This document shows positions 2,261-55,241 of a stretch of 64,000 nucleotides of DNA, one piece after another. Each line of letters starts with the position of its first letter. Position 1 is the first letter of the stretch. The stretch lies in contig NZ_JADBEB010000001.1 of assembly GCF_014874095.1 (NCBI RefSeq), forward strand, positions 5,642,001 to 5,706,000. Reading direction: 5' to 3'. Made by a program: the position numbers and the translations under genes. Source of the DNA: Plantactinospora soyae (GTDB lineage Bacteria > Actinomycetota > Actinomycetes > Mycobacteriales > Micromonosporaceae). The notes beneath the pieces were generated by a model. The model ran no database searches. It was not told the origin of the DNA and saw only the letters and a list, made by a program, of their open reading frames with translations.

Positions 2261-3979
2261 CTAGCTGAAGAAGTAGAGCTGGCTCAGCGGGAGGTGCCGG
2301 GCCGGCGAAACCGTCGCGTGCACGCCGTCGACCCGTACCGCGAAGGTCTCCGGATCCACCTGGATGTCCGGCAGGGCGTCGTTGCGGACCATGTCCCGCT
2401 TGGTCAGACCCCGGGTCCCGCGGACCGGAAGGATCTGCCGGCGCAGGCCGAGTTTCTCGCCGACCCCGGCCTCGTAGCCCGCCTGGGACATGAACGTCAC
2501 GCAGTTCGCGCTCAGGGCCGCCCCGTACGCGCCGAACATCGGTCGGTACGTGACCGGCTGCGGAGTGGGCACCGAGGCGTTCGGATCGCCCATGATGGAC
2601 CAGAGGATCATTCCGTTCTTGATCACCATCTTGGGTTTGGCGCCGAAGAACGCCGGCTCCCACAGCACCAGGTCGGCCATCTTGCCGGGCGCGATCGAGC
2701 CGAGCACGTGGGCGATGCCCAGGGTGATCGCCGGGTTGATGGTCATCTTGGCCACGTACCGCAGCACCCGGAAGTTGTCGTTCGCCGGTGCGTCCTCCGG
2801 CAGCCTGCCCCGGGCCACCTTCATCGCGCTGGCGAGCTGTACGCTGCGCAGCCAGTTCTCCCCGATCCGACCCATCGCCTGCGAGTCGCTGGACATCATC
2901 GAGATGGCGCCCAGGTCGTGCAGCACGTCCTCGGCGGCGATCGTCTCCGGGCGTACCCGGCTCTCCACGAGCGCCACGTCGGAGGGGACCTTCGGGTTGA
3001 AGTTGTGGGTGACCATGGTCATGTCGAACAGCTCAGCCTGGCTGTTGATGCCGTACGGGTTGGTCGGCGTGGTGGAGCTGGGCAGGCAGTTCATCTGGCC
3101 GGCCACCTTGATGATGTCCGGCGCGTGGCCGCCGCCGGCTCCCTCGGTGTGATAGGTGTGGATGGTCCGGCCCTCGAACGCGGCGATGCTGTCCTCCACG
3201 TAGCCGCTCTCGTTGAACGTGTCGGTGTGGACGGCCACCTGGATGTCGAAGCGTTCGGCGGCGGTCAGCACCGACCGGATCGCCTGCGGCGTCGCACCCC
3301 AGTCCTCGTGGAGCTTGTAGCCGGCGGCACCGGCGCGCGCCTGCTCCGCGAGTGGCTCCAGGCCGGAACTGTTGCCCTTGGCGATCAGGCCGACGTTGAC
3401 CGGAATGCCCTCGATGGCGCGCATCATCGCGTGCAGGTTCCATGGCCCGGGTGTGGCGTTCACCCCGTTCGAGCTGTCGCTCGGCCCGGTGCCGCCGCCC
3501 CAGATGGTGGTCACGCCGTTGCTCAGCGCCGCGTACGCCTGCTGCGGCGCGATGAGGTGTACGTGCGAGTCGATCCCGCCGGCGGTCAGGATGAGATGCT
3601 CACCGGCGATGGCGTCGCTGCCCGGACCGACCACCAGCCCGGGGGTGACCCCGGCCATGACGTCCGGGTTGCCGGCCTTGCCGATCCCGACGATCCTGCC
3701 CTCCTTGATCCCCACGTCGGCCTTCAGCACGCCGAGTTGGGCGTCGAGGATTGTCACGTTCGTGATGACCAGGTCCAGGACTCCGCTGGAGTTGGTGAGG
3801 TCGACGTTGGCGCCCATGCCGTCGCGCAGGGTCTTGCCACCGCCGTAGACGGCTTCGTCGCCAAGGGTGCGCAGGTCCTGTTCGATCTCGATGTAGAGAT
3901 CCGAATCGCCCAGCCGGATCTTGTCACCGGTGGTCGGGCCGTACAGTCCGGCGTACTCCTGCCGGGAGATCTGACTCAT
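2261..3979 (-). CDS. ureC: Urease alpha subunit UreC with Cys-to-Thr change in the flap
   Basis: This catalytic subunit hydrolyses urea at a two-nickel centre. Nickel ligands are visible: H139 and H141 (SHVHLIAPQ), carbamylated K222 ([11 protein letters not shown]), H251, H277 ([13 protein letters not shown]) and D365 (SSDSQAMGR). The mobile flap normally reads VCHH; here it is VTHN (residues 323-326), so the flap cysteine is threonine while the catalytic histidine H325 remains. Length (572 residues) is normal. An AGGAG site sits 7 bases before the ATG. The gene lies between ureB and ureE in one operon. I regard it as a probable active urease of a divergent subtype. Confidence 0.97.
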
Positions 3980-12151: not shown

Positions 12152-13012
12152 TCAGGCGCTCGGGCAGGTGTTGCGGTACTCCTCGACCGCGCTGCCGCTC
12201 GGGCCCGGGCAGAGGAACTGCTCGTAGCGGGTGTCGTCGTCGACGAAGCGCTTGAGCCAGGCGACCATCTGCCGGCCGGTCGGCGTGTTGACGCTCTGCG
12301 GGAAGAAGTGGCTGGCCCCGTTGAGTTCCAGGTACGCCTTCTCGGACGAGGCCGGAATCGTGGAGTAGAACGGAACCGCGTGGGAGGAGACCGGGGCGAC
12401 CGAGTCGTTCTCGCCACCGATGATCAGCGTCGGCACCCGGATCCCGGACCAGGTCTTGGTCGAGTTCCACGGCGCGATCGGGATGGCGGCCTGCAGGGAC
12501 GGCCGGTCGCGCGACGCCTCCAGGCTTCCGCCGCCGCCCATGGAGTGACCGGCAACCGCCAACCGACCGGCATCGACGCGGCTGCGGACGGAACTTCCCT
12601 CGACGAGGTAGTCGAGCGCCGCGAGGAGTTGACGGCCACGGCTGTCGGGCTGGTCCAGCCGGCTGTTGGTCTCGATGCCGATCACCACGAAGCCGTGCGA
12701 GGCGATCCGTGGGCCGAGCCAGCTGATGCTCGACCAGGCTGCGGTGTAACCCGGCGAGATCGCGATCGCGCCGAACGTACCCTCGCTGGTGCTCGTCGGG
12801 TAGTAGATGACGCCGCCGCCGAAGCCGGAGACGAGCGACGAGACGCTCACCTGTGCGGTGGCGAACGGGCCACGGCTGGCGTCGAGGATCGCGGAGGTCG
12901 GGTCGGGGCCGCGCTCGTACGGGCTGTCGGCAGCCTGGGCGGGCGGGCTCGCGCCCACCAGGGCGAGCAGGACGGCGGTGGCTGCGGTGCTGAGGCGGAT
13001 GGCGGTCTTCAC
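12152..13012 (-). CDS. Secreted polyester hydrolase (cutinase / PET-hydrolase-like)
   Basis: A 286-residue alpha/beta hydrolase with signal peptide (cut near residue 27, SPPAQA). From memory it aligns almost end to end with Thermobifida cutinase TfCut2 and less closely with Ideonella PETase. Visible are the mature start SPYERGPDPTSAILDASRGP, nucleophile S157 in GHSMGG, acid D203 (ENDSVAP), H235 (GASHFFP), oxyanion/aromatic residues Y89 (SPGYT) and W182 (IAPWN), and the C-terminal disulfide pair C268/C283 (LCPG, NTCP). The cysteines of PETase's extra disulfide are absent. Positions equivalent to PETase S214/I218 are H211/F215, as in cutinases. GTG start after AGGGAG. Natural substrates would be cutin-like polyesters. 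Confidence 0.93.
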   Translation of the reverse strand: MKTAIRLSTAATAVLLALVGASPPAQAADSPYERGPDPTSAILDASRGPFATAQVSVSSLVSGFGGGVIYYPTSTSEGTFGAIAISPGYTAAWSSISWLGPRIASHGFVVIGIETNSRLDQPDSRGRQLLAALDYLVEGSSVRSRVDAGRLAVAGHSMGGGGSLEASRDRPSLQAAIPIAPWNSTKTWSGIRVPTLIIGGENDSVAPVSSHAVPFYSTIPASSEKAYLELNGASHFFPQSVNTPTGRQMVAWLKRFVDDDTRYEQFLCPGPSGSAVEEYRNTCPSA

Positions 13013-13217
13013 GTCGGGGGCTCCCTGGTCCGTCGGGACATCGACGTGGACCAGTGTTTGCCGCCCCGGGCGGGTACGCATCGGCGAAATCACCAGCGGC
13101 GGGCAGCGTCCCGACCGCACGGGTGGGTGACGAACGACCACCACGCGTCGCCGACGGGATGGGCGAAAATCGTCGTACGACGGTGTCGGACGTCGTCTAG
13201 TCGTACCGGAGGTGTCC

Positions 13218-14663
13218 ATGCTGTTTCGTCCTCCTGGGACTGTCGCCACCGGGGCGGCCGGGCAGGATCTCGGTCCGCGGCTGGCGACGTACCGGGCCTG
13301 GCGTACCGATCCGTTCACGGCGGTCTGGATCGCGGTCGGCGCCGCGGTCGTACTCGCGGTGCTGTCGTTCCTGGTCGGACTGCCGGCGGTCGGCGTCGCG
13401 CTCGTTCCCGTGGCCGCGCTCGGTGCGGCGGCGTACGCGGGACTTCTTCCACCGGCCGGGGGCCGCCGCTGGCTGGTGGTCCACGAGCGGGGATTCGTCG
13501 ACGCCGTCGACGGCGTCCCGCCGCTGGTGGCCAGGTGGGAATGGGTGAGTGGCCCGGTGCGGCCCGGACCGGACGGGAGCCGGGCGATCAGCGTCCACCC
13601 GGTCGGGGCGGCCGAGCCCACGCGGGTCGTCCTCGACGGCCTGGCGCCGCTGGCCGACCTGGTGGCGGCGGTCGAGCTGGGCGTCGGGCCCGTCATCGTG
13701 TCCCGTGCCCTGGCGGCGGCGCGTGCCGGCGAGCGGGTGGAGTTCGGCCCGCTCGCCGTGACGGCCGACGGGGTGGAGCGGGTGGCCGATGGGGACCGCC
13801 TGCCGTGGGAACTGGTCGACTCGGTCCGGCTCGTGGCGGGAGAGCGGATCGTTCTCGGCCGGGCCGGCGAGGTGCGGGCCTGGTTCAGCGGGCAGGTGCC
13901 GGAGGCGGCGGTCGCGATCGGGCTGATCGCCGCGCTCCGACCTGCGACGGCACCCGGGCAGCCGGATACCGCGATCTTCGTCCCCGCCGCCGTCTCGGCC
14001 GCCGGACGCGCCCGGGACCGCCGCCGCCGGTACCTCGTCTCGGTCGCCGGGCTGGTGGTGCTCGCGTTGCTTCCCGGCGTCGCCTACGCGGCGATCGACC
14101 AGCCGGACGACCAGGCCCGGCCGGCCGCCACGAAACCCGTGCTCCGGGTGGCGCCGACGCCGTCGCCCACCCGGCCGAGCCCCACCCCCACCCCCACCCC
14201 CTCACTCGTCCCACCGCCGCTGCCGCGGTTGCCGGAGACCATCTACGGGTACTCGCCGGTCTGCGACGGCCAGGGTTTCGCCGGAGCCGCGCGGTACGGC
14301 GGCCGCGCGCCGCACCCGGTCCATGTCGACGAGAACTTCGTCCGTGGACCCGGGCGGTGGTACTCGGACAACCCGGCGAAGATCCAGATCGTCGCCTGCG
14401 TCCAGTTGCAGAAGGGCCGGGTACTCAAGAAGTGCCGCTACTTCGGCGGCGGCAAGGACGTCGTCCAGAACATGGTCCTCGGGCGGTACACGCTCGTCAT
14501 CCGGGAGGCGCGTACGGCGAAGATCATCGGACGGACCCGGATCGACGGTGCCGACGCCGACTGCCTGTTCCTGCTCTACGGCGCACGGGAGCCCGACGAG
14601 CAGCAGGTAAGCGTGCCGACCGAGGCGCAGATCCGGACCGCGTTGCGCCGCTACGTCGAGTAG
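13218..14663 (+). CDS. Membrane protein of unknown function with Pro/Thr linker and C-terminal extracellular domain
   Basis: I do not recognise a family. The protein (about 481 residues) starts at an ATG five bases after GGAGG. It has two N-terminal membrane helices (about residues 34-80, including AVVLAVLSFLVGLPAVGVAL), then a soluble region of about 180 residues rich in short beta strands (WLVVHERGFVDAVDG resembles PH-like bacterial domains). A third helix follows (YLVSVAGLVVLALLPGVAYA), then a linker of TPTPSPTRPSPT type and a C-terminal domain with paired cysteines (SPVCDGQ, IVACVQLQ, LKKCRYF, ADCLFLL). It lies head-on against the sigma-fusion gene, with only 25 bases between stops. Confidence 0.6.
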   Translation: MLFRPPGTVATGAAGQDLGPRLATYRAWRTDPFTAVWIAVGAAVVLAVLSFLVGLPAVGVALVPVAALGAAAYAGLLPPAGGRRWLVVHERGFVDAVDGVPPLVARWEWVSGPVRPGPDGSRAISVHPVGAAEPTRVVLDGLAPLADLVAAVELGVGPVIVSRALAAARAGERVEFGPLAVTADGVERVADGDRLPWELVDSVRLVAGERIVLGRAGEVRAWFSGQVPEAAVAIGLIAALRPATAPGQPDTAIFVPAAVSAAGRARDRRRRYLVSVAGLVVLALLPGVAYAAIDQPDDQARPAATKPVLRVAPTPSPTRPSPTPTPTPSLVPPPLPRLPETIYGYSPVCDGQGFAGAARYGGRAPHPVHVDENFVRGPGRWYSDNPAKIQIVACVQLQKGRVLKKCRYFGGGKDVVQNMVLGRYTLVIREARTAKIIGRTRIDGADADCLFLLYGAREPDEQQVSVPTEAQIRTALRRYVE

Positions 14664-14688: not shown

Positions 14689-16842
14689 CTACCGGCCCAT
14701 GGCAGCGCCGATGCGATCGTCCCTGGTGTTGGTCAGAAAGGTGGTCGGCGGCAGACCACCGCCCGGTGGTCTCGGCGCCAGTGTGGAGCCCGGATCGGTG
14801 GTGTGCAGCTCCGCGCCGCTCCAGCCGTCCTGGTTCCAGGAGTTGTCCGCCGCGTCCACGCCGGCACCGAGCTGCCACTCGCGGGCGTTGCCGATCGACA
14901 GGTTCTGGCGCAGCAGCGATGTTGATCGCTCGAAGGCGAAGCCGGTCTTGCCGTTGCGGAACGCCGTGTTGCTGCGCACCGTCAGCGTGCCGGCGTTCCC
15001 GCTCTCGGTGAACCCGTACCCGGCGTTGTCCCACGCCGCGCTGCCGGTGACCACGTGATCCACGGAAGCGGGTCGGGTACCGCCGCCGAGCTTGAAGCCG
15101 TAGCCGTCGCCGTCGAAGGGAGCGATGCCCCAACGGTTCACACCGTTGCCGAACGACCAGGTGCGTTCGATGGTGACCGGACCGGTGAACTCGTGCAGGC
15201 CCAGGCCGTCGTCGGCGTTCTCGTACAGCCGGCAGTTCCGGACGACGTTTCCGGTGCCGGAGCCGTACTCGATGCCCAGGCCGTCGGCGTACTCCCCGTT
15301 GGTGGCGGTGTCGTGGTTGCGGAAGAAGTCGCTGTCGACGACCAGGTTGCCGGTGGTGTTCGGGTCCCGGAGCAGCAGTCCGGTCTGCCCGTTGTCGTGG
15401 AACGACAGTCCCCGGAAGACGCTGTACGCGCATGACCGGCAGACGTACGCGCTCCCGGGGGCGCCGTGGACCTGAAGACCCTGCACGGTCCAGTAGCTCG
15501 CCCGCTGGCTGACGTACGGCGCGTCGGCCGGGATCTGCGAGGCGTCGATGGTCGGAATCTCGTTCCGGTAGTTGCTCAGCACGATGCGCCGGTCCGCCGT
15601 ACCGCTGGTGGTGATCTCCACCGGTCGGGTGGGCCGGTAGACCCCGCCGCGCAGGGCGATGTTCTGACCCGGCCGGACCACCGATGTCGCCCGGTCGAGG
15701 GTGGCGAAGGGGAGGTCGAGACTTCCGGGGTTGGTGTCGCTGCCGTCGGGGGCGACGTAGTAGGAGGCGGTGGTGACGCCGTTGACGCCGCCCGCCGGTC
15801 GCGGGGCCGGAGCGGGCGTACTCCCCGGGCCGGCCGTCGGCGCGGCGGATGGCGCCTCGGCGGTCGCCGCCACCGACGGTTCCGCGAGTTCCGGACCGCC
15901 GTCCTGGTACGCCGGGTAGTGCACCGCGAGGACGAACGCGCCGGCCGTACCGACCGCGACGAGTCCGCCGACCGGCAGGAACTTCGCCATCAGGTACCTG
16001 GCGGCCCGCTGGAGCGGATCCCACAGGCCCCAGACGGGTGCGGCAACCCCGCCGGCGGTGGCCGCCGCGCCGGCCAACCCGGCGAGGACGGGCGCGAGGT
16101 TGGCGCCCGCGATCAGGTGTTCCGCCGGGATGAGCTCCCGCTCGTGGGCGAGACAGACCTCGCAGCGCCGGACGTGCCGACCGAGCCGCTTCAACCAGCG
16201 AGGATCCGACGGCCCGCTGAGTTTCTGGGCCGCCTCGGTCAGTTCGGCACAGCGCGGGATCGCGTGCCAGGCTCGCAGCAGCGTCCGGGCGAGCGCGAGC
16301 TGCGCCTTCACCCGCTGCACCCGGACCGCCGCGTGCGCGGGGGTGAGCCCGAGCCCGGTGGCGAGGTCGGCGCGGGTGAGCAGACCAGCCGACTCCTGCC
16401 ACCACAGCCTCAGCACGCGCTGGTCCTCGACGCTCAGCCAGCGGCTGGCCTCGTAGGTCTCCCGGCGTTCGCCGGAGAGGTGGAGCCGGAACATGGTCGA
16501 GTCGACGAAGTCGCCGGCCGGGTCGGGCCATTGCGACACGTCGCCGACGAGCGGCCCCAGTGCGGTCGCGACTCGGATCGAGCGGCCGCGATCCTGCATC
16601 TGACGGTAGGCGATCGAGATCACCCAGGCCCGGAAGCGGTCCGGATCCTTGAGCCCGGCAATCCCTCGTACGACCCGGAGCATGGTTTCCTGGACCACGT
16701 CGTCGACGTCGGAGCTGCCGTGCAGGGCCTTGCCCACCACGTTGTACACCAGCGGCATGGCCTCGGCCACCAGGGTCGCCATGGCCTGCTCGTCCCCGCC
16801 GCGAGCCGCGATGACGAGCGCGGGGTCGACCGCTGTCCGCAC
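14689..16842 (-). CDS. ECF sigma factor fused to zinc finger, membrane helix and extracellular beta-helix domain
   Basis: One open frame of about 717 codons joins domains that are normally separate. Sigma region 2 is at about 25-85 (SDVDDVVQETMLRVVRGIAG, FRAWVISIAYRQMQD) and region 4 at about 130-190 (LSVEDQRVLRLWWQESAG, LGLTPAHAAVRVQRVKAQL). A zinc-finger anti-sigma-like H223-x3-C227-x2-C230 follows, then a membrane helix at about 287-307, a Pro/Ala linker, and a right-handed parallel beta-helix (about 360-717; YYVAPDGSDTNPGSLDLPFA start, repeated GL-L-N--A turns). The topology places the beta-helix outside the cell. GTG at 16842 follows AGGGGG; an ATG at 16872 is the alternative. It is divergent from a pectate lyase, which it may control. 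Confidence 0.9.
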   Translation of the reverse strand: MRTAVDPALVIAARGGDEQAMATLVAEAMPLVYNVVGKALHGSSDVDDVVQETMLRVVRGIAGLKDPDRFRAWVISIAYRQMQDRGRSIRVATALGPLVGDVSQWPDPAGDFVDSTMFRLHLSGERRETYEASRWLSVEDQRVLRLWWQESAGLLTRADLATGLGLTPAHAAVRVQRVKAQLALARTLLRAWHAIPRCAELTEAAQKLSGPSDPRWLKRLGRHVRRCEVCLAHERELIPAEHLIAGANLAPVLAGLAGAAATAGGVAAPVWGLWDPLQRAARYLMAKFLPVGGLVAVGTAGAFVLAVHYPAYQDGGPELAEPSVAATAEAPSAAPTAGPGSTPAPAPRPAGGVNGVTTASYYVAPDGSDTNPGSLDLPFATLDRATSVVRPGQNIALRGGVYRPTRPVEITTSGTADRRIVLSNYRNEIPTIDASQIPADAPYVSQRASYWTVQGLQVHGAPGSAYVCRSCAYSVFRGLSFHDNGQTGLLLRDPNTTGNLVVDSDFFRNHDTATNGEYADGLGIEYGSGTGNVVRNCRLYENADDGLGLHEFTGPVTIERTWSFGNGVNRWGIAPFDGDGYGFKLGGGTRPASVDHVVTGSAAWDNAGYGFTESGNAGTLTVRSNTAFRNGKTGFAFERSTSLLRQNLSIGNAREWQLGAGVDAADNSWNQDGWSGAELHTTDPGSTLAPRPPGGGLPPTTFLTNTRDDRIGAAMGR

Positions 16843-17140
16843 GTTGACCCCCTCTCCGTCCGTGATCGTCATATTTGCATGGTTCGACCTCCCGGTCGGT
16901 GGTGACCCGGGCGTGGCCCACCTTCGTTGACGCGGGACCGGGTCGCCGGATAACAGCAATCGAAGCCCGGCCGCACGGGGCGGCAAGATTCCAGACCCGA
17001 TCTTGCAAGGGGTACGGGAACGCGCTTTCCTGACCCAGGCTCCCGACGCTGCCGACCCCGGTGGCGACTGCTCCCGGGCGCCGTACGCCGTGCGCCGCAT
17101 GTGCGTGGACCCCACTCCGTCCCGCCCCTGGAGGTTCCCC
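16843..17140. promoter_or_regulatory. Divergent promoter region between sigma-fusion gene and pectate lyase gene
   Basis: About 300 bases separate the two starts. The rightward gene has GGAGG six bases before its ATG; the leftward gene has a GGAGAGGGGG site before the GTG. I could not fix a -35/-10 pair; an ECF-type promoter recognised by the fusion itself would be the thing to look for here. Confidence 0.4.
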
Positions 17141-18514
17141 ATGATCTCTGCGCTCCTGGACCGCCGACGATGGCGTCGGTGGTCAACGGTCACCGGTGCC
17201 GTCGCGGTGCTGGTCGTCGGTGCCATCGGCTTCAGCCACACCGCACAGGCCGCAGCACTGTTCGGTGACGACTTCGAGGACGGCGACACCGGCGGCTGGT
17301 CCAAGTCCGGCGGTACCTGGGCGGTCACCGCCGACGGTTCCCAGACGGTGCGGCAGTCCAACGCCGGCAGTGAGAACGCCCGCCTGTTCGCCGGTACGAC
17401 CAGTTGGACCTCCTACGCCGTCCAGGCCCGGGTCAAGCCGCTGAGCTTCGGCTCAGGCGGCCAGGTCGGACTGCTGGCCCGGGCGGCCGGGTCCACGACC
17501 TTCTACCGGCTGGCCCTGCTCCCCGGCAACCAGGTGCAGCTACAGGCCGTCAAGGGCAGCACCGTCACCGTTCTCGGCGGCGCCTCCCGTACGGTCGCCA
17601 CCGGCAGCTGGTACACGCTCGCGATCGAGGTCAACGGCTCGACGGTACGCGGAACCGTGGACGGTTCCCAGGCCGCGCAGGGCACCAGTTCGGTCTCCGG
17701 CACCGGCCGGATCGGCCTACAGACGGTGTACGCGTCCGCCGCGTTCGACGACGTCTCCGTGACGACGTCGGGAACCACCCCGCCGACGGCGAGTCCGACG
17801 ACACCGAACAACCCGCCCACCACCACGCCGCCGCCCACGACCACTCCGCCCTCGACGACCTGGCCGACCCCGACCGGCAACGCGCCGGTCAACAACGGCA
17901 CGATCCAGGTCACCGGCACCTTCGACGGTGGGATGCGCCGCTACTGCTGCATCGGCGACGGCGGGCAGGGCGAGAGCCAGGACCCGGTCTTCGAACTCGC
18001 CGCCGGAGCCACCATCCAGAACGTCATCCTCGGTGCGCCCGCCGGTGACGGCATCCACTGCGAGGGCAACTGCACCATCCGCAACGTCTGGTGGGAGGAC
18101 GTGGGCGAGGATGCCGCGACCTTCCGGGGCGGCACCACCTACAACGTCATCGGCGGCGGCGCCCGATCCGCCTCGGACAAGGTGTTCCAGCACAACGGTT
18201 CCGGCACGGTGCACATCTCCGGCTTCTACGCCGAGAACATCGGCAAGCTCTACCGGGCCTGCGGCAACTGCTCCAGCTCGTACCAGCGGCACGTCGTGAT
18301 GGACAACGTGACCGTCCGCAACGCCGATGCCATCGCCGGCATCAACACCAACTGGGGCGACACGGCCCGCTTCACCCGGATCACCATCTACGGCGACGCC
18401 ACGGTCTGCCAGAAGTACCGTGGCGTGTCCAGCGGAAACGAGCCGGAACTGATCGGTGAGGGCGCGGACGGCGTCAACTGCATCTACAGCAGCTCCGACA
18501 TCACCTACCGCTGA
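17141..18514 (+). CDS. Secreted pectate lyase, polysaccharide lyase family 3, with N-terminal carbohydrate-binding-type domain
   Basis: The enzyme cleaves polygalacturonate by beta-elimination. The 457-residue protein has a signal peptide (MISALLDRRRWRRWSTVTGA, cut near HTAQA), then a jelly-roll domain of about 170 residues (LFGDDFEDGDTGGWSKSGGT to FDDVSVT), a Pro/Thr linker, and a C-terminal PL3 beta-helix. The PL3 hallmarks CCIGDGGQGESQDPVFELA, NVILGAPAGDGIHCEGNCTI and VWWEDVGEDAATFRG are clear, with the many cysteines typical of the family. Start chosen for GGAGG six bases upstream. It is divergent from the sigma-factor fusion gene. Confidence 0.93.
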   Translation: MISALLDRRRWRRWSTVTGAVAVLVVGAIGFSHTAQAAALFGDDFEDGDTGGWSKSGGTWAVTADGSQTVRQSNAGSENARLFAGTTSWTSYAVQARVKPLSFGSGGQVGLLARAAGSTTFYRLALLPGNQVQLQAVKGSTVTVLGGASRTVATGSWYTLAIEVNGSTVRGTVDGSQAAQGTSSVSGTGRIGLQTVYASAAFDDVSVTTSGTTPPTASPTTPNNPPTTTPPPTTTPPSTTWPTPTGNAPVNNGTIQVTGTFDGGMRRYCCIGDGGQGESQDPVFELAAGATIQNVILGAPAGDGIHCEGNCTIRNVWWEDVGEDAATFRGGTTYNVIGGGARSASDKVFQHNGSGTVHISGFYAENIGKLYRACGNCSSSYQRHVVMDNVTVRNADAIAGINTNWGDTARFTRITIYGDATVCQKYRGVSSGNEPELIGEGADGVNCIYSSSDITYR

Positions 18515-45101: not shown

Positions 45102-46403
45102 ATGAGAAGAACATCGGGCCGACGGACCGCTCTGCGGTCGTTGGCCGGAGTCCTTGCGGTGACGCTGGTGCTCAGCGTGGCGGCCTGCGGTGACGACAGC
45201 CCGGGGGACCAGGGCGGCGCGGCTCAGGCCGGCCCCAACGGAGTGGACGACGGCAGCGAGCTGACGCTGTGGACCCGGGCCCCGCTGGAGAAGCAGGCGA
45301 AGCTTCTCGTCGAGGCGTACAACGCAGGCCACAAGAACAAGGTCAAGCTGACCGTCGTCCCCAACGACGACTACGTCGCGAAGGTGGGCGCGGCGGCGGG
45401 CTCCGACAGCCTGCCGGACCTCTTCGCCGCGGACATCGTCTACGTGCCGAACTGGGTCAACCAGGGACTGTTCCAGGATCTCAGCTCGAACATCGACGGA
45501 CTCAGCTTCAAGGACTCCGTCAACAAGGGCCACCTCGCGGCCGGTACGCAGGACGGCAGGAAGCACGTGCTGCCGTTCGTACTCGACCTGTCGATGCTGT
45601 TCTGGAACAAGCAGCTGTTCAAGGATGCCGGGCTGGACCCGGAGAAGGCGCCCGCGAGCATGGTGGAGTACGCCGCGGCGGCCAAGGCGGTCCAGGCGAT
45701 GAAGAAGGACGGCGTCTACGGCACGGCGGCCGGTCTGAACTGCGGCGGTTGCCTGGTCTTCACGTGGTTCCCCTCCATCTGGGCCGCCGGCAACGAGGTG
45801 CTCAGTGAGGATGGCAGGGAGTCCAAGCTGGCCGACGACACCGCCAAGAAGGTGTACGACATCTGGGCCGACCTGTGGCGGTCGGGTGCCGTCCTGCCGG
45901 CCTCGTCCGGAGAGACGGGACCGACCTGGACGGCGGCGTTCACCGAGGGCAAGGTCGGCCTGATGCTCTACCCCGCGACGCTGCTCTCTTCCACGCCGTT
46001 CGATGCCGGCGTCGCCGGTATCCCCGGCCCCGACGGTGGTGCGTCGACCTTCGTCGGCGGCGACGGCATCGGCGTGTCGAAGGACTCGAAGAAGGCCACC
46101 CAGGCCTGGAACTTCCTCAGCTGGATGATGTCCGAGGAGGCCCAGGTGGAGGTGCTGGCGAAGAACAAGGACGTGGTGTCCCGCTCCGACCTGGCGAAGA
46201 ACAAGTACGCCACCGCGGACCCGCGCCTGGTCACCATCAACGAGGTGGCCGGCAAGGGTGACACCCCGGTCGCGATGAACTTCCAGCAGGCGTTCAACGC
46301 ACCGAACAGTCCCTGGCTGACCCTCGTGCGCAACCAGGTGCTCAACGCCAGCGGCGACACCCAGAAGGACAACAGCGAGATCACCGCCGTACTCAAGCAG
46401 TAG
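45102..46403 (+). CDS. Sugar ABC transporter substrate-binding lipoprotein
   Basis: Captures an oligosaccharide, here probably an arabinoside, outside the membrane. The 433-residue protein has a lipoprotein signal with lipobox VAAC (C29), and a family 1 (maltose/multiple-sugar type) binding fold: SELTLWTRAPLEKQAKLLVE, DLFAADIVYVPNWVNQGLFQ, VLPFVLDLSMLFWNKQLFKD, FTEGKVGLMLYPATLL, WNFLSWMMSEEAQVEVLAK. GAGGAG lies four bases before the ATG. It is the first gene of an eight-gene plus-strand cluster. Confidence 0.94.
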   Translation: MRRTSGRRTALRSLAGVLAVTLVLSVAACGDDSPGDQGGAAQAGPNGVDDGSELTLWTRAPLEKQAKLLVEAYNAGHKNKVKLTVVPNDDYVAKVGAAAGSDSLPDLFAADIVYVPNWVNQGLFQDLSSNIDGLSFKDSVNKGHLAAGTQDGRKHVLPFVLDLSMLFWNKQLFKDAGLDPEKAPASMVEYAAAAKAVQAMKKDGVYGTAAGLNCGGCLVFTWFPSIWAAGNEVLSEDGRESKLADDTAKKVYDIWADLWRSGAVLPASSGETGPTWTAAFTEGKVGLMLYPATLLSSTPFDAGVAGIPGPDGGASTFVGGDGIGVSKDSKKATQAWNFLSWMMSEEAQVEVLAKNKDVVSRSDLAKNKYATADPRLVTINEVAGKGDTPVAMNFQQAFNAPNSPWLTLVRNQVLNASGDTQKDNSEITAVLKQ

Positions 46404-46414
46404 CCCTGATCGTC

Positions 46415-46461
46415 GCGGGCGTATGCCGGCAGCCGGACCCGTCGGACCGGCATGCGCCCGC
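46415..46461 (+). terminator. Intergenic stem-loop between binding protein and permease genes
   Basis: Arms 46415-46429 and 46447-46461 pair over 15 bp with one G-T wobble, around a 17-base loop. There is no T-tract. Such structures often keep binding-protein mRNA more abundant than permease mRNA. Confidence 0.7.
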
Positions 46462-46520
46462 CTCGCGGCACCGGAACGGGTGACCGGTCCGGCCCATCGC
46501 CGATGGAACGAGGAGTTGTC

Positions 46521-47438
46521 ATGAATGTCGACGCACCGTCGCGCACATCCAGTGCGACGACGCGGGGCGGCTTCCGTCCCAGCCGCCGCCAGGCCCTGCT
46601 CGGCTGGATCTACGCCACGCCGACCGCGGTGTTCGTGGTGGCGCTGTTCCTGGTGCCCCTGCTACTCGTCATCAAGATGTCGCTGTCGAGATGGCCGCTT
46701 CTCAGCGGCGACCAGGGACCCAACGCGCCGGACAACTTCACCAAGGCGATCGACCACCGCTTCTTCACCGACTCGGTGGTCTTCACGATCAAGTACACGG
46801 TGATCGCGACCGTGCTGCTGCTGCTCCTCGGCCTGGGGATGGCGCTGCTCGTCCAGGAGTCCAGCCGGTGGAACAACCTGCTCCGGGCGTCGTTCCTGGT
46901 TCCCAGCGCACTCGGGTTGGCCTCGGCGTCCCTGCTGTTCTACGTGCTCTACTCGCCCTATGCGAGCCCGTTCGCGCCGGTGATGGAGAGCCTCGGCATC
47001 ACCTTCCTCGGCTCGCCGAACGCGGCGCTCTTCTCGACCGTGTTCCTCATCGTCTGGCGCTACGCCGGCTTCTACATGGTGCTCATGCTGGTCGGGCTGC
47101 AGAGCATCCCGGCGGACGTGTTCGAGGCGGCGCGCTCGGACGGCGCGACCCGCTGGCAGACCTTCCGGAGCATCACCCTGCCGCTGCTCCGTCCGACGCT
47201 GGCGCTGACGACCGTGCTCTGCGTGACCGGATCCCTGCTCGCCTTCGAGCAGTTCTACATCCTCACCAAGGGCGGCCCGGACAACAGCACCATCACCGTG
47301 GTGCAGCTCATCTACATGATCGCGTTCCAGGGCCAGAACGACCTCGGCGTCGCCGCGGCGCTCTCGGTCATCGTGCTGGCGGCTCTGGTCCTCATCAACG
47401 CGCTGCAACTGCGCGCCTTCCGGTCCGAGGAGAACTGA
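46521..47438 (+). CDS. Sugar ABC transporter permease (MalF-like)
   Basis: One half of the transport channel. The 305-residue membrane protein has six predicted helices, the first at about 34-54 (ATPTAVFVVALFLVPLLLVI). The cytoplasmic EAA loop contacting the ATPase reads VFEAARSDGATRWQTFRSITLPLLRPT. ATG five bases after GAGGAG. It is followed after three bases by the second permease. Confidence 0.94.
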   Translation: MNVDAPSRTSSATTRGGFRPSRRQALLGWIYATPTAVFVVALFLVPLLLVIKMSLSRWPLLSGDQGPNAPDNFTKAIDHRFFTDSVVFTIKYTVIATVLLLLLGLGMALLVQESSRWNNLLRASFLVPSALGLASASLLFYVLYSPYASPFAPVMESLGITFLGSPNAALFSTVFLIVWRYAGFYMVLMLVGLQSIPADVFEAARSDGATRWQTFRSITLPLLRPTLALTTVLCVTGSLLAFEQFYILTKGGPDNSTITVVQLIYMIAFQGQNDLGVAAALSVIVLAALVLINALQLRAFRSEEN

Positions 47439-47441
47439 TCC

Positions 47442-48359
47442 ATGACCGTGGACTCCAGCCCCACCAGTGCGGCTGTCGCCGGGTCGCCCCGGCGCCCACC
47501 GAGGATGCCGAGCGGACCGGGGAGGCAACGCGGCCTCACCATCGCCGGTGTCGCGTTCCGTACGCCGTACTGGGTCTTCACCGGAGCGGTGGCAGTGGTG
47601 TTCCTCTTTCCACTGGTGTGGACCGCCGTCGCCTCGGTCTCCCCGCAGGCGGGCACCAACCAGGTGACCGGTTGGGGGTTCGGCAACTACGCCACCCTCG
47701 CCGACTACCAGGCCGGCATCTGGCGGTACCTCGCCAACTCGGCCTTCGTCTCACTCCTGACGGTCGCGCTCACGCTGCTGATCTCCTTTCTCGGTGGCTA
47801 CGCGTTCGCGCGGTTCCGCTTCCCCGGCAGGAACCTGCTGTTCCTGCTCACCCTGGCCATCCTCATGGTGCCGTACGCGACGCTGCTCATCCCGCTCTAT
47901 GTCCTGCTCAACGAGGTGGGTCTGCAGAACTCGCTGGTCGGTGTCGCCCTGGTGCTCACCATGTTCCAGCTGCCGTTCTCGACCTTCCTGATGCGCATCT
48001 CCTTCGAGGCGGTGCCGCGCGAACTCGACGAGGCGGCGATGGTCGACGGCTGCTCGTCGTTCAGCGCGCTGTGGCGGGTACTCGTCCCCGCGGTCAAGCC
48101 GGGTCTGATCACCGTGGGGCTGTTCGCGTTCCTCGCCGCGTGGAACGACTTCATGGCGCCGCTGATCCTCATCAACGACTCCGAGCGCATGACGCTGCCG
48201 CTGGCCGTGTCCAACCTGCGTGGCCAGGTCCAGGGGGTGGTCGACTACGGCGCGACCGAAGCGGGCGTCGTCGTCCTCGCGCTGCCGTGCATCGTGCTGT
48301 TCCTGCTGCTCCAACGACACTACGTGCGCGGCTTCATGTCCGGCGCACTGAAGGGATGA
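47442..48359 (+). CDS. Sugar ABC transporter permease (MalG-like)
   Basis: The second permease, also 305 residues with six helices. The EAA loop is LDEAAMVDGCSSFSALWRVLVPAVKPG. The N-terminal 30 residues are Pro/Arg/Ser-rich and cytoplasmic. No ATP-binding subunit gene occurs in the operon, so a shared MsiK-type ATPase encoded elsewhere is likely. Its stop overlaps or abuts the start of the GH127 gene. Confidence 0.94.
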   Translation: MTVDSSPTSAAVAGSPRRPPRMPSGPGRQRGLTIAGVAFRTPYWVFTGAVAVVFLFPLVWTAVASVSPQAGTNQVTGWGFGNYATLADYQAGIWRYLANSAFVSLLTVALTLLISFLGGYAFARFRFPGRNLLFLLTLAILMVPYATLLIPLYVLLNEVGLQNSLVGVALVLTMFQLPFSTFLMRISFEAVPRELDEAAMVDGCSSFSALWRVLVPAVKPGLITVGLFAFLAAWNDFMAPLILINDSERMTLPLAVSNLRGQVQGVVDYGATEAGVVVLALPCIVLFLLLQRHYVRGFMSGALKG

Positions 48360-48361
48360 CC

Positions 48362-50281
48362 ATGGCACCCAGCGCGCCCACGGCGGCACCCGTCCTGCCG
48401 AGCCGAGGCCGGCTCCAGCCGCTCGGACTGGACGAGGTACGGATCACCGGCGGCTTCTGGGCCGAACGTCAGTCCGTCAACGCGGAGGCCACTCTCGAGC
48501 ACATCGGGCACTGGCTCGAGCGGGAGGGCTGGATTCGCAACTTCGACCTGGTGGACACCGGCGACCTGACCCGCGAGCGCCGGGGGCGCGAGTTCTCCGA
48601 CTCGGAGGTGTACAAGTATCTCGAGGCGATGGCGTGGGAGATCGGCCGGACCGGTGACCCGGAGCTGGAGTCGCGGTTTCGTGCCGTCGTGACCAGGGTG
48701 GCCCGGGCCCAGGACGCCGATGGCTACCTCAACACCAAGTTCGGTCATTCCGGGCAGCCACCGCGCTGGTCCGATCTCCAGTGGGGCCACGAGTTGTACT
48801 GCGTCGGCCATCTCCTCCAGGCGGCCGTCGCCCGCGCCCGTACCCGACCGGAGGCGGACGACGGGCTGGTGGCGATCGCCCGGCGGGCCGCCGACAACGT
48901 CTGCGCGACCTTCGGACCGGACGGTATCGACGGGCTCTGCGGCCATCCGGAGATCGAGACCGCGCTCGTGGAGTTCGCCCGCGCCACCGGTGACGACCGC
49001 TACCTGCACCAGGGGGCGCTCTTCGTCGAGCGGCGCGGCACGGGCCGGCTGGGCGACGTGGAGTGGGGGAGGGAGTACTTCCAGGACGAGACGCCGGTAC
49101 GTGAGGCGACGGTGCTGCGGGGGCACGCGGTACGGGCGAACTACCTCGCCGCCGGGGCGGTCGACGTCGCCGCCGAGACGGACGACCCCGACCTGATGAA
49201 AGCGGTCCGTGACCAGTGGCGGAACACGGTGGCGCGACGCACGTACGTCACCGGCGGGCAGGGCTCCCGGCACCAGGACGAGGCGTTCGGCGAGGACTGG
49301 GGGCTGCCGCCCGATCGCGCCTACTCCGAGACCTGCGCCGGAGTGGGATCAGTGATGCTGGCCTGGCGGCTGCTGCTCGCCTCCGGTGACTCCGGCTACG
49401 CCGACCTCATCGAGCGGACCCTCTTCAACGTGGTGTCGACGTCGCCCGGGGCCGACGGAAGGCAGTTCTTCTACACCAACACCCTGCACCGCCGGGAACT
49501 CGGCACCGTACCGGACGGCGACCGACCCAGCATCCGCGCCGCCGCCGCCCAGCGGGCGCCGTGGTACGAGGTGTCGTGCTGCCCGACCAACGTGGCGCGC
49601 ACGCTGGCCAGCCTCGCGGCCTACGTCGCCACCACCGACGACGAGGGCCTCCAGATCCACCAGTACGTGCCCGGGACGATCGCGCACCGCCCGGTGGACG
49701 GCACCGATCGCCGACTGACCCTCACCACCGGCTACCCGGCCGACGGGCAGATCCGGGTCCGGATCGACAGCGACGACGACCGCCCCTGGACGCTGTCGCT
49801 GCGGGTGCCGGGCTGGGCGGACCGGGGTGCGACGCTGACCGTCGACGGGGAGGTCCGGCCGGTGCGCGCCGGTTACGTCACCGAGCGACGGACGTGGCGA
49901 CGCGGCGACGAGGTCGTCCTGAGCCTGCCCATGGCGCCCCGGTTCACCCACCCGGACGCGCGCATCGACGCGGTCCGCGGCTGCGTCGCCGTGGAGCGGG
50001 GCCCGCTGGTGTTCGCGGTGGAGTCCGTGGACCTGTCGGGGGGCGAGAACGTCGACGAACTCCTCGTCGACACCAGCCAGCCGCCGATGTTGGCCGGTGG
50101 CCGGGTGGTGGTGTGTTGCCGGCGCCTCGACCCGGCCGACCACCACTGGCCGTACGGCGGGGGCGAGGCGGCGTCGACGACCACGCCCCGGGGGGACCTG
50201 CTCGAGGTTCCGTTGATCGCGTACCACGCCTGGGCCAACCGGGGTCCATCCACGATGCGGGTCTGGCTCCCGACGATCTGA
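48362..50281 (+). CDS. GH127 beta-L-arabinofuranosidase
   Basis: Cleaves beta-L-arabinofuranosyl residues such as those on hydroxyproline-rich glycoproteins. The 639-residue protein has the (alpha/alpha)6 domain (VRITGGFWAERQSVNAEATL, YKYLEAMAWEIGRTGDPELE) with catalytic Glu and zinc Cys in AYSETCAGVGSVMLAWRLL, and the cysteine nucleophile pair C406/C407 in EVSCCPTNVARTLASLAAYV. There is no signal peptide, so it acts inside the cell on imported sugars. GAAGGG lies six bases before this ATG; an ATG at 48356 overlapping the permease stop (ATGA) is possible. Confidence 0.94.
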   Translation: MAPSAPTAAPVLPSRGRLQPLGLDEVRITGGFWAERQSVNAEATLEHIGHWLEREGWIRNFDLVDTGDLTRERRGREFSDSEVYKYLEAMAWEIGRTGDPELESRFRAVVTRVARAQDADGYLNTKFGHSGQPPRWSDLQWGHELYCVGHLLQAAVARARTRPEADDGLVAIARRAADNVCATFGPDGIDGLCGHPEIETALVEFARATGDDRYLHQGALFVERRGTGRLGDVEWGREYFQDETPVREATVLRGHAVRANYLAAGAVDVAAETDDPDLMKAVRDQWRNTVARRTYVTGGQGSRHQDEAFGEDWGLPPDRAYSETCAGVGSVMLAWRLLLASGDSGYADLIERTLFNVVSTSPGADGRQFFYTNTLHRRELGTVPDGDRPSIRAAAAQRAPWYEVSCCPTNVARTLASLAAYVATTDDEGLQIHQYVPGTIAHRPVDGTDRRLTLTTGYPADGQIRVRIDSDDDRPWTLSLRVPGWADRGATLTVDGEVRPVRAGYVTERRTWRRGDEVVLSLPMAPRFTHPDARIDAVRGCVAVERGPLVFAVESVDLSGGENVDELLVDTSQPPMLAGGRVVVCCRRLDPADHHWPYGGGEAASTTTPRGDLLEVPLIAYHAWANRGPSTMRVWLPTI

Positions 50282-50432
50282 GCCACCGGAAGCCGGACAT
50301 CCCGGGCCGCGAGGGCGGCGCCAACCAGGTGACCGAGGCAGACCACCGCCTCGGCCGCGACCCCGTCATGCCCCGAGTGCGCCATCCGACCGAAGTCTGA
50401 CCTTCACCCCCACCGCCACCAGGAGGAACAAG

Positions 50433-53400
50433 ATGAGTATTAGACGCGTCAGGAGAGCGTCCACGTGGGCGGCTCTCGCCGCCCTCGTGGCGGGCGGGGT
50501 GGTCGGCCTGCCGTCGCCCGCCCACGCCGCCAGCCCGGTCCTTCCGGGCAACGAGGGCGACGTGGGTGTCTACACCGACGGGCAGAGCCACGTCATGGAG
50601 ATCGGGGATCCTGCCTACGGCAACGTCGCGGAGGTGGCCGAACAGCTCAAGCCCGGCGTGCCGTTCACCGCGTCGAGCATGCACCAGTCCATTTTCGACA
50701 AGGATCTCGCGGCCGGCGGCACGGACTACTACCTCGACCGCGTCCTGGGCGTTCGCGGCACCCTCGGCGCGGCGGTGCTGATGACCAGGGGCCGGTCGCT
50801 GTACATGCGCGGCGCCAGCAACAACAACTTCGCCGTCATGGGCTTCGCCGGCAGCACCTTCGTCGGCGGGCCCAACAACCTCGGCAACCTCTACACCGTG
50901 ACGGTGCCCGGCCAGACGGTCACGGAGGTCGGCGCGAACCGGTTCAACGCACCGAGTCACGCCAAGGGCCGGTACACGATCGGCAGCACCGGTGTCACCG
51001 CCGACCTGACGAAGTTCATCACCTACGACAACGTCGCGGTCACCGCCGTCGACCTGCGCAACCCGGGCGGGGAGGCGGCGACCTTCACCGTCCGCGCCGC
51101 GTCGCCGCTGGCGACGCAGGCCGGCGAGGGCGCCGCCGAGCTCACCGGTACCCGCACCATCACCAGCGGCTCCAACAACGGGCTCGTCGACACGGCGTGG
51201 AACACGATCAGGGTCGGCCTCACCGGCTCCGGTTTCACCCGCAGCGGCAGCAACCTCGACCGGGAGGTCACCGTGCCGGCCGGCGGCACGGTGTCGCTCT
51301 CCGTCGTCGGTGCCGTCTCCTCGGCCACCCTGCCGGAGACCGTGCAGAGCTACCAGCAGTACACCGGCCAGGCGCCGGGCGAGGCGGTCCGGACCGGCAT
51401 CACCGAGTTCAACCGGCGCTGGGCGCAGGACGTCCCGTACATCGACGTCCCCGATCCCGCCCTGGAGAAGGCCATCGTCTACCGGTGGTGGGGCGAGCGG
51501 TACAACAGCCTCGACGCCAACGCGCCGGGTCACGTGTACCAGTACCCGACGACGATCGAGGGGGTGAACCTCTACCAGAACTCCGTGGCGCTGACCCAGC
51601 CGATGCATCTCCAGGACACCAAGTGGCTGCGTACGCCGTACCTGCCGTACGGGCAGATCCTCAACATCGGCGAGCTCTCCGGCTCCTCGGCCTTCCTCGA
51701 CAGCCCCGGTCACACGAGTTGGAACAACCACTACTCGCAGTACCTCGGCACGGCCGGACTCGAGGCATACAACGTGCACGGCGGTGGTAAGGAGATCGCC
51801 CGGAAGTTCGCCGGCTACTTCGAGGGCGACGGCGTCGGGCAGCTCGAGCACTACGACGGCAACGACGACAAGCTGATCGCCTACGACACCAACTACATGC
51901 CGGGCAACGACTCCGACGCGATTTCCTTCGGTTTTCCGAAGACCAACGCCGGGGCACCCGGGGCGCGGACGATCGAACGTCCCGAGTCGGCGTACGTCTG
52001 GGGCGCGTTGGACGCGGCCCGGCAGCTCTACCAGATCGCCGGCGCCGACCAGGCCAAGGTCGACCAGTTGGCGGCCGGCGCCGACGGCGTCCGCGCCGCG
52101 GTCCTCGACCGGCTGTGGAGCCCGGACATGCGGATGTTCCTGGCCGGTACGTCGCACGGGGCCACCAGTGCGGCCAGCTCCAACGGCAGGGCCAACCCGC
52201 TGCCCGAATCGGCCCGCGACCTGATCCCGGCCAAGGAGTCGAACCTCTACGACGTCTACGCCGAGAACCTCATCCCGTTCGACCAGGCACAGAAGTACGT
52301 CGACGGGTTCCGCTTCCTCACCTACGGCGACAACTTCCCGATCTTCCCGTTCTACACCGCCAACCAGTACGACAAGACGGCCTACGGGGTCGGCGGCTCG
52401 AACAACTTCTCCAACATCAACTTTACGGTGCAGTACCGGGGTGTCCGGTCGGCGCTGCGCCACTACGACCCGGCGCAGAAGTACATCACTCCGGAGTACG
52501 CCAAGCGCCTGCTGGACTGGATGGCCTGGAGCATCTACCCGAACGCGGATGTCCGGGTGCCGAACCAGGCCGAGTACTACTCGAACTGGAACCCGACCGC
52601 TAAGACCTACAACCGGAACAACCCGAACCACGTGATGCTCGGGAACATGAGCTACATCTTCGTCGAGGACATGGCCGGCCTCCAGCCGCGCTCCGACGAC
52701 AAGATCGAGTTGTGGCCGATCAAGTTCGGCTACGACCACTTCATGGTCAACAACCTGCGCTACCACGGGCAGGACGTCACGGTCGTCTGGGACCCCGACG
52801 GCAGCAAGTACGGCCTGGGCGCCGGCTACAGCCTGTTCCTGAACGGCGAGAAGAAGGTCAGCACCGACAAGCTCGGCAAGCTCACCTACGACCCGAACAC
52901 CAACCAGGTGCAGGCCGAGGAGGGCGTGGCCGTCACCTTCACCGCCACGACCGGGACCGACTTCCCGAGCGCGGTGGACACCCCGGTCGCCGACGACCGG
53001 GTCGTCAACTACCTCAAGACGGCCGGCATCGACCTCACCGAGAACGCGCCGAACCTGGCGGCGGGGGCCGAGCTCAGCTCGTCGTACACCCAGCAGGGCG
53101 TGCGGCCGGCGCCGTGGCGGCAGTTCCACACGCCCGGCTGGAGCAGCACCTCGATGAACCACACTCCCGGGGCGATCAAGGAAACCGAGCGGCCGGTGTC
53201 GCTGGCCGCCGTGACCGACGGCGTCACCGCCAATGAGCCGTACTGGGGCAACTACGGCAGCACGGACAAGAACGGCTATGTCGAGCTCGATCTGGGGTCG
53301 GCCAGGTCGTTCGACAACGTCAAGGCGTTCTTCGTCAGCGACCGGCAGGCCGGTGGCTACCGGGAACCCGCTCGCTGGTGGATCCAGGTGCCCGACGGCG

Positions 53401-55172: not shown

Positions 55173-55181
55173 TCCCTCAGC

Positions 55182-55211
55182 GGTGGCGGCGCCGTTCCCG
55201 GCGCCGCCACC
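55182..55211 (+). terminator. Perfect 13-bp intergenic hairpin between the two large glycosidase genes
   Basis: GGTGGCGGCGCCG (55182-55194) pairs with 55199-55211 around the tetraloop TTCC. It begins ten bases after the stop and ends 31 bases before the next start. Confidence 0.8.
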
Positions 55212-55241
55212 ACCCCCGCCAAGATTGAGGAGATCGACACC

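What the first reader, a model, noticed from the sequence alone, without database searches (positions are those of the whole stretch)
14689..17140. One-protein signalling device: ECF sigma factor, zinc finger, membrane helix and external beta-helix, divergent from a pectate lyase
Seen: a single open frame of about 717 codons with sigma regions 2 and 4, an H-x3-C-x2-C zinc finger, one membrane helix, a Pro/Ala linker and a beta-helix of the pectin-binding/lyase type, facing a PL3 pectate lyase gene across about 300 bases. Known: ECF factors with C-terminal zinc-finger and carbohydrate-binding extensions have been reported in actinobacteria. Inferred: the beta-helix senses a pectic ligand outside and the tethered sigma is released, perhaps by proteolysis, to switch on the lyase. 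The match between sensor fold and target enzyme substrate is what makes this pair unusual.
Basis: partly seen in the sequence, partly recalled or inferred. Interest (0 to 1): 0.85.

Follow-up and report, generated by a model that had tools for sequence, protein, structure and literature searches.

The report
Sigma factor with pectate-lyase sensor
A soil-type actinobacterium makes a single membrane protein that joins a gene-switching sigma factor to a pectate-lyase-like outer domain whose active site is damaged in most relatives, and it probably senses pectin and switches on itself and pectin-degrading genes.

Summary
The fusion is real. Window 14689-16872 (-) is one open frame: ECF sigma domain, zinc anti-sigma finger, one membrane helix, Pro/Ala linker, and a PL9 (Pel9A)-type beta-helix. 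The fusion is in 39 of 150 sampled family genomes. Pectin genes (PL1, CE8, PL3, PL9) lie within two genes in 35 of 42 loci; 12 loci with the same chassis and another outer domain have none, though two of four further ones do. Secreted PL9 enzymes keep five active-site residues in 20 of 20 cases, sensors in 6 of 41; the window's lost one calcium ligand. An ECF-type promoter, GTTATC-N16-CRTCWAC, faces PL1/CE8/PL3 genes in relatives. In the window's 9.7-Mb genome the exact form occurs twice: before the fusion itself and before a secreted PL9 lyase. None faces the adjacent PL3 gene, so the device is supported but direct control of its neighbour is not. Two fusion-negative genomes also have such sites before PL3/PL9-like genes. 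The kind is known (ECF52/ECF53-like); the decayed-PL9 sensor with its promoter circuit is a new variant. Sensing, ligand and release are inferred.

The parts
14689..16872 (-). Fusion gene: ECF sigma + zinc anti-sigma finger + TM helix + PL9-like beta-helix, 727 aa from ATG (717 aa from GTG 16842)
16582..16773 (-). Sigma-70 region 2 (residues 34-97)
   Evidence: Pfam PF04542
16264..16491 (-). Sigma region 4 helices (about residues 128-203)
   Evidence: NCBIfam sigma70-ECF 30-193; helices in the model
16153..16251 (-). Zinc anti-sigma (ZAS-like) finger, C208...H233-x3-C237-x2-C240
   Evidence: invariant columns; regular expression 36 of 37; zinc binding itself inferred
15922..15978 (-). Single membrane helix, residues 299-317
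   Evidence: mean hydropathy 2.03; 37 of 37 members have a hydrophobic window after the finger
15790..15921 (-). Pro/Ala-rich linker, residues 318-361
   Evidence: low confidence in the model; alignment
14731..15783 (-). PL9 (Pel9A)-like beta-helix, residues 364-714; Pel9A D209/D233/D234/D237/K273 correspond to D530/D554/D555/G558/K594
16926..16954 (-). Predicted ECF-type promoter GTTATC-N16-CGTCAAC facing the fusion gene (autoregulation)
   Evidence: top site of the 64-kb window also with a matrix built without the window clade; kept with 15-base spacing in L173 and L177
17017..17030 (.). Palindrome GGAACGCGCTTTCC before PL3, kept in L049 and L050; LacI-operator-like (resemblance recalled)
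17141..18514 (+). PL3 pectate lyase gene with N-terminal LamG/3-keto-disaccharide-hydrolase-like domain
   Evidence: Pfam PF03211 E 4.2e-76

Best explanation
The protein is a membrane-tethered ECF sigma factor carrying its own anti-sigma domain and its own receptor. Outside the cell, a beta-helix descended from a PL9 pectate lyase, with a changed active site in most members, binds pectic chains or fragments. Binding is passed through the linker and single helix, most likely by stepwise proteolysis, and frees the sigma domain from the adjoining zinc anti-sigma domain. The freed sigma recognises GTTATC-N16-CRTCWAC promoters. In most relatives these stand before PL1 lyase / CE8 methylesterase (sometimes PL3) genes beside the sensor. 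In the window's genome they stand before the sensor gene itself and before a secreted PL9 lyase. Shown here: domain anatomy, conservation of the fusion, co-location with pectin genes, promoter placement, change of active-site residues. Inferred: pectin binding, outward topology, proteolytic release, and that this sigma reads this promoter.
For: Fusion in 39 of 150 family genomes, 14 of 44 genera. Pectin gene within two genes in 35 of 42 loci; none among 122 called genes of 12 loci with other outer domains. Held-out named loci: 28 of 32; 24 of 32 if four loci with only a PL9-like hit are set aside. Promoter: 27 regex sites in 757 kb, 0 inside called genes; 17 face PL1/CE8-cluster genes, 2 a PL1-like gene, 3 the fusion, 5 another gene or none. 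In L021, L055, L056, L058, L062-L065 and L069 the lyase is not divergent from the fusion, and a site still faces the lyase. Held-out loci: 7 matrix hits, 0 with each of five column-shuffled matrices, 6 of 7 facing CE8 or PL3. Own genome: two exact sites. Fusion-facing site also kept in the 70% relatives L173 and L177. Family: exact site in 18 of 39 fusion-positive and 10 of 111 fusion-negative genomes. Away from the fusion, the exact sites in G000 and G137 face PL9 enzymes. Active site: 20 of 20 enzymes intact, 6 of 41 sensors; sensors and enzymes lie on two sides of one branch with 100/100 support.
Against: No site faces the adjacent PL3 gene in the window, L049 or L050. The pattern was derived from loci of the same genomes: leaving out the 17 sites beside a fusion, exact sites remain in 7 of 39 fusion-positive and 10 of 111 fusion-negative genomes. 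Two fusion-negative genomes, G006 and G129, have exact sites before a PL3 and a PL9-like gene though no full-length PL9 fusion was found in them at E 1e-20, so the promoter may also be read by another sigma or be a relic. Six loci of one genus group (L022, L076, L079-L082) have no pectin gene within three genes; where a site was found there it faces a dinB-like gene. L020's best site faces no called gene. 26 of 33 held-out loci gave no matrix hit above 15, partly because of spacing and -35 variants. Two of four other-cartridge loci left out have a pectin gene: L236 (its own outer domain is PL1) and L240. Six sensors (two of them identical) keep all five active-site residues, and the window's keeps the catalytic lysine. 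No ligand, protease or expression data.
Confidence: 0.72

Rival explanations
1. The beta-helix is a working membrane-anchored lyase that degrades pectin at the cell surface, with sensing secondary or coupled to its own catalysis.
For: Catalytic lysine and three of four aspartates are kept in the window's protein; 6 of 41 sensors keep all five residues. The GH128-like outer domain of paralogue L004 keeps motifs that look catalytic (read by eye).
Against: 35 of 41 sensors have lost at least one residue that 20 of 20 secreted enzymes keep, in different ways in different branches. The window clade lost the D237 ligand, named as a calcium site in PMC10992409.
Confidence: 0.15
2. The conserved GTTATC-N16-CRTC element is read by another regulator of pectin genes (another sigma factor or an operator-binding protein); the fusion has another regulon and is merely linked.
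For: Two fusion-negative genomes carry the exact element before PL3/PL9-like genes. LacI-like palindromes lie in the same intergenic regions, so other regulators act there. A few elements face dinB-like genes or none. Recognition by this sigma was not tested.
Against: Two half-sites at near-fixed spacing, oriented, mostly about 40-250 bases before called starts, not palindromic; a CRTC -10 is typical of ECF promoters (recalled). It faces the fusion gene itself in the window, L049, L050, L173 and L177, as expected of an autoregulated ECF factor. More frequent in fusion-positive genomes, with the caveat that the pattern came from them.
Confidence: 0.18
3. The sigma is not released by proteolysis: ligand binding changes the anti-sigma contact and the sigma works while tethered.
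For: No protease or cleavage site was identified here. In SCO4117 (ECF52) release by a protease is only suggested (passages of PMC5826349).
Against: For fused ECF groups with ZAS and TM, and for IutY, proteolysis is the reviewed model (passages of PMC8999054).
Confidence: 0.25
4. Two genes joined by a sequencing error.
For: None found.
Against: 41 of 42 loci have one open frame; full-length relatives at 70-82% identity.
Confidence: 0.01

Closest known systems
ECF52 sigma factors (SCO4117, Streptomyces coelicolor)
   Same: Sigma domain, zinc finger, TM, Pro-rich linker and carbohydrate-binding domain in one actinobacterial protein; proteolytic release proposed; a putative motif before its own gene suggests autoregulation (passages of PMC5826349)
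   Different: SCO4117's outer domain is a smart00776 carbohydrate-binding module, and its described role is development and antibiotics; here a PL9-type beta-helix tied to pectin genes
ECF53 / ECF48 sigma factors
   Same: ZAS-like zinc finger plus one or two TM helices and long extensions; some ECF52/53 have predicted glycosyl hydrolase or carbohydrate-binding domains (passages of PMC8999054 and PMC10766802)
   Different: Nothing I saw describes a PL9 beta-helix, a decayed active site or a target promoter for them; group assignment not tested
Clostridium thermocellum sigma-I6/RsgI6 and sigma-I3/RsgI3
   Same: Outer domain taken from an enzyme: RsgI6 GH10 has very low activity but still binds; RsgI3 binds pectin and sigma-I3 drives pl11 and ce12; autoregulation (passages of PMC4711584)
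   Different: Sigma-I family rather than ECF; sigma and anti-sigma are two proteins; GH10 or PA14 rather than PL9; Clostridia
IutY (ECF243, Pseudomonas putida)
   Same: Sigma and anti-sigma in one protein, activated by proteolysis (passages of PMC8999054)
   Different: Responds to a siderophore (aerobactin) in an iron-starvation cell-surface signalling system
Pel9A (1RU4), PL9 pectate lyase
   Same: Same fold and homologous sequence over 364-714
   Different: A pectate lyase with the full active site; here fused to a sigma factor with one calcium ligand replaced by glycine

Membership tests
ECF sigma factor | Sigma-70 regions 2 and 4, no region 3 | tested here: met
   Region 2 by Pfam, 37 of 37 relatives; TIGR02937 over 30-193 above its cut-off; helices in the model
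ECF52/ECF53-type (fused anti-sigma, actinobacterial) | C-terminal zinc finger and one or two TM helices | tested here: met
ECF52/ECF53-type | Long extracytoplasmic extension with carbohydrate-related domain | tested here: met
   PL9-like beta-helix; outward side inferred, not assayed
ECF52/ECF53-type | Restricted to Actinobacteria | tested here: inconclusive
ECF53 (or ECF52) as a formal group | Assignment by the group's own HMM | not testable with these tools
   Group models not held; only passages of reviews seen
PL9 polysaccharide lyase | Fold and sequence homology to Pel9A | tested here: met
PL9 polysaccharide lyase (active enzyme) | Calcium ligands D209, D233, D237 and base K273 | tested here: not met
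   Window D530, D554, G558, K594: the D237 equivalent is lost
Sigma-I/RsgI | Separate sigma-I and RsgI proteins; promoters with A-tract -35 and CG-type -10 | tested here: not met
   One protein, ECF-type sigma, promoter GTTATC-N16-CRTC; sigma-I features from passages

The most novel reading that the evidence does not exclude
A pectate lyase was captured once as the outer half of a sigma factor and turned into a receptor: its active site has since decayed in different ways in different lineages, while the sigma half kept its own promoter code. In the window's genome the receptor controls a working enzyme of the same family (PL9). The same sigma/anti-sigma/TM chassis also carries PL1, GH128-like and AbfB domains, so it would be a plug-in set of polysaccharide receptors built from enzymes and their modules.
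Probability: 0.5. Interest if true: 0.76.

Novelty: new variant of a known kind. Interest (0 to 1): 0.6.

Why it matters
Fused ECF sigma factors with carbohydrate domains have been listed for years; a 2024 review says experimental validation of their predicted carbohydrate domains has yet to be done (passage of PMC10766802), and in the passages I read the only target motif was a putative one for SCO4117. Here both halves become testable: a candidate ligand class (pectate), a named promoter with two exact sites in one genome, and natural variants with intact or changed active sites. If right, it shows how an enzyme becomes a receptor, and gives a compact one-protein pectin sensor.

Tried and rejected
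Sequencing join: rejected. PL3 as direct target in this genome: looked for and not found. LacI-like palindrome as a family-wide element: the searched forms only in WIN, L049, L050 among 41 scanned upstream regions; a related GAGCGCTCC block is common in 18 chosen held-out loci, mostly Actinoplanes and kin. CTTTACA / GTGCCACGAT elements before some fusion genes were seen and not pursued. The two-mismatch genome search gave 203 sites, too loose to use; only the first 100 or so are listed. Of the seven looser sites in the own genome five were treated as chance: one (L091) lies inside a called gene, one (L088) is 0.9 kb before a ricin-lectin-like gene, the rest face no pectin enzyme that I recognised. 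PL9 enzymes elsewhere: of 20 a strong site only for L151 (this genome) and a variant for L152; G137's PL9 site came.

Rows dropped before counts: two partial matches (G105:C148, G080:C26) were not fetched; L083 was left out of residue counts because of its internal TGA; L225 has no called fusion and was left out of the 32. The 12 control loci left out L015, L236, L240 and L242 of the same chassis; one search added them: L015 and L242 none by these queries (though L015 has PL11- and PcRGLX-type genes), L236 and L240 one each. In one search a C-terminal piece of L083 was listed among enzymes by mistake; it was not used. L051 and L052 are identical rows. D234 as a fifth residue is recalled; D209, D233, D237 and K273 are from PMC10992409, and with those four alone the count is still 6 of 41. 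The matrix and regex were built from the 42 loci themselves; only and the leave-clade-out run are held-out.

Literature: listings, 73 of an open-access library showed no paper on a sigma-PL9 fusion. Huang 2015, Pinto 2019 and the 2021 ECF reclassification were not seen and may list beta-helix members. Of PMC8999054, PMC10766802, PMC5826349, PMC6627557, PMC10992409, PMC6056542, PMC4711584 and PMC12203970 I saw passages only; all other papers only as search listings.

Full report
What is there. The minus strand of window 14689-16872 holds one open frame of 727 codons from ATG 16872, or 717 from the GTG at 16842 that matches the start in relatives. In order it encodes: sigma-70 region 2 (34-97) and the rest of an ECF sigma domain to about 203; a zinc anti-sigma-like finger with C208, H233, C237 and C240 invariant in 37 aligned sequences; one membrane helix at 299-317; a Pro/Ala-rich linker; and a right-handed beta-helix at 364-714. 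The beta-helix is specifically of the PL9 pectate lyase type: PF22842 E 3.8e-17, Pel9A 1ru4 E 2.4e-40 by sequence and the top Foldseek hit with target TM 0.78. The AlphaFold model has confidence mostly 95-98 across the beta-helix, high confidence for the sigma helices and low confidence from 257 to 361. A lysine before the helix (K297) is nearly invariant, which fits the sigma side being inside; topology was not assayed.

It is a family. A protein search of 150 genomes of the family found the fusion in 39, in 14 of 44 genera, at E 1e-90; the six other same-genus genomes searched had no match at that level. Of 44 matches two were partial and not fetched, so 42 loci, the window included, were studied; all but L083, which has one internal stop, are single open frames. 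A scan of named genomes listed 77 loci, many of them Micromonosporaceae, with further full fusions in Streptomyces and Saccharothrix; the later rows match only the sigma half.

Neighbourhood. Catalytic parts of PL1, CE8, PL3 and PL9 were used as queries against called neighbour genes. A pectin gene lies within two genes of the fusion in 35 of 42 loci, directly adjacent in 33. The common arrangement is a ricin-lectin plus PL1 enzyme and a CE8 methylesterase in tandem (Pfam for examples). Twelve loci with the same chassis but other outer domains had no such gene among 122 called genes. Four more loci of that chassis were looked at later: two have none by these queries, L236 (outer domain PL1) has a PL9-like neighbour and L240 a PL1-like one. 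In 33 named loci outside the first set, 28 of the 32 with a called fusion have a pectin gene within two genes; for L173, L177, L191 and L195 that gene is only PL9-like. The exceptions in the first set are six loci of one genus group that share a dinB-like neighbour (name read by eye).

Promoter. Regions upstream of the fusions share a two-part element, GTTATC-N16-CRTC[AT]. In 757 kb it occurs 27 times, never inside a called gene (24 with spacing 16, three with 15). Seventeen sites face PL1/CE8-cluster genes, two face a PL1-like gene, three face the fusion itself (window, L049, L050), and five face another gene or none. Where the lyase is not divergent from the fusion, a site still faces the lyase. 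In held-out loci a matrix from 22 unique sites gave 7 hits against 0 for each of five column-shuffled matrices, and 6 of the 7 face CE8 or PL3 starts at 28-225 bases; 26 of the 33 loci had no hit. Part of that shortfall is variation: L173 and L177, about 70% identical to the window protein, have the fusion-facing site with spacing 15, and 15 of 18 chosen loci, mostly Actinoplanes and kin, share a TGTC / TCTA form. In the window the site is at 16954-16926, 53 bases before ATG 16872. It remains the best site of the whole 64 kb when the matrix is built without the window clade (21.4 against 5.6 for the next).

Predicted regulon here. In the 9.7-Mb genome the exact form GTTATC-N16-CRTCWAC occurs twice: before the fusion, and before a secreted CBM2-PL9 lyase about 0.88 Mb away. 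Across 150 genomes exact sites occur in 18 of 39 fusion-positive and 10 of 111 fusion-negative genomes; 17 of 35 sites lie beside a fusion, and without those the figures are 7 of 39 and 10 of 111. I read the surroundings of 17 of the 18 remaining sites: in fusion-positive genomes those of G000 and G137 face PL9 enzymes; in fusion-negative genomes those of G006 and G129 face a PL3 and a PL9-like gene, and no full-length PL9 fusion was found there at E 1e-20. So the element is tied to pectin genes more widely than to the fusion. The adjacent PL3 gene has no site on its strand in the window, L049 or L050.

A decayed lyase. Pel9A calcium sites D209, D233, D237 and base K273 are given in PMC10992409; D234 was added from memory. 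Twenty secreted-type PL9 enzymes from the same family keep all five; only 6 of 41 sensors do, two of them identical, and the window's has G in place of D237. Sensors and enzymes fall on two sides of one fully supported branch, and the losses differ between sensor clades, so they happened more than once (reading). This resembles RsgI6 of C. thermocellum, whose GH10 domain has very low activity but still binds (passages of PMC4711584).

A shared chassis. The same genome holds two paralogues: one with a Glyco_hydro_cc domain, and one with an AbfB domain next to PL11 and PcRGLX-type rhamnogalacturonan lyase genes. Elsewhere a sigma half is fused to a PL1 domain (L236).

What is known. ECF48, ECF52 and ECF53 factors with zinc finger, TM helices and extensions, and proposed proteolytic activation, are described; SCO4117 is the studied case (passages). 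The present protein meets the described architecture, but formal group assignment could not be run. The open-access listings I searched showed no description of a PL9 sensor or of this promoter, with the caveat that the main classification papers were not available to me.

Judgement. The most likely mechanism is pectin sensing by a decayed PL9 domain with release of a self-inhibited sigma that activates its own gene and pectin enzymes. Sensor descent, neighbourhood and promoter placement rest on sequence evidence; ligand, topology, release and recognition of the promoter by this sigma are inference.

Noticed in passing
L015:9109-15880 (G000:C1 about 7.533-7.540 Mb): Paralogue: sigma + TM + AbfB domain, next to PL11 and PcRGLX-type rhamnogalacturonan lyase genes; looks like a second pectin (RG-I side-chain) sensor in the same genome.
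   Followed up: partly
L236:1002-2963: Sigma half fused to a PL1 pectate lyase domain in a Micromonosporaceae MAG, with a PL9-like neighbour: a separate recruitment of a pectate lyase.
   Followed up: partly
L238, L245; L252: Same sigma chassis with an outer domain that no Pfam model recognises in L238 and L245; L252 of G129 looks alike by eye.
   Followed up: no
L144 (G006) and L141 (G129): Genomes without the PL9 fusion carry the exact promoter before a PL3 and a PL9-like gene; G129 also has a short sigma frame L256, 48% identical over 17-262, that may be a remnant.
   Followed up: partly
L022, L076, L079-L082: Fusion subclade with heavily changed active site (mostly SGDNA) kept beside a dinB-like gene (name by eye) instead of pectin genes; promoter spacing 15 where the regex found it.
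   Followed up: partly
L203, L212 and other loci: GGGAGCGCTCCC palindrome downstream of the promoter element before CE8 genes: a LacI-type operator (recalled resemblance) may add repression.
   Followed up: no
window 45159-58469: Sugar ABC transporter genes (binding protein by Pfam) followed by GH127 beta-L-arabinofuranosidase, a 1561-aa F5/8-type-C protein and a GH43 protein: an arabinoside-use cluster.
   Followed up: no
window 12152-13081 (-): PETase-like hydrolase, just below NCBIfam's cut-off for BHET hydrolase BdeA (473.6 of 520 bits for the longer frame).
   Followed up: no
window 3531-3825 (+): Rfam 5_ureB_sRNA (64.3 bits), antisense to the frame 2261-3979 (-), a urease alpha subunit by eye.
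   Followed up: no
window 13218-14663 (+): 481-codon gene convergent with the fusion, no Pfam match to the slightly longer frame; its C-terminal part looks like that of L071_3 (by eye).
   Followed up: no
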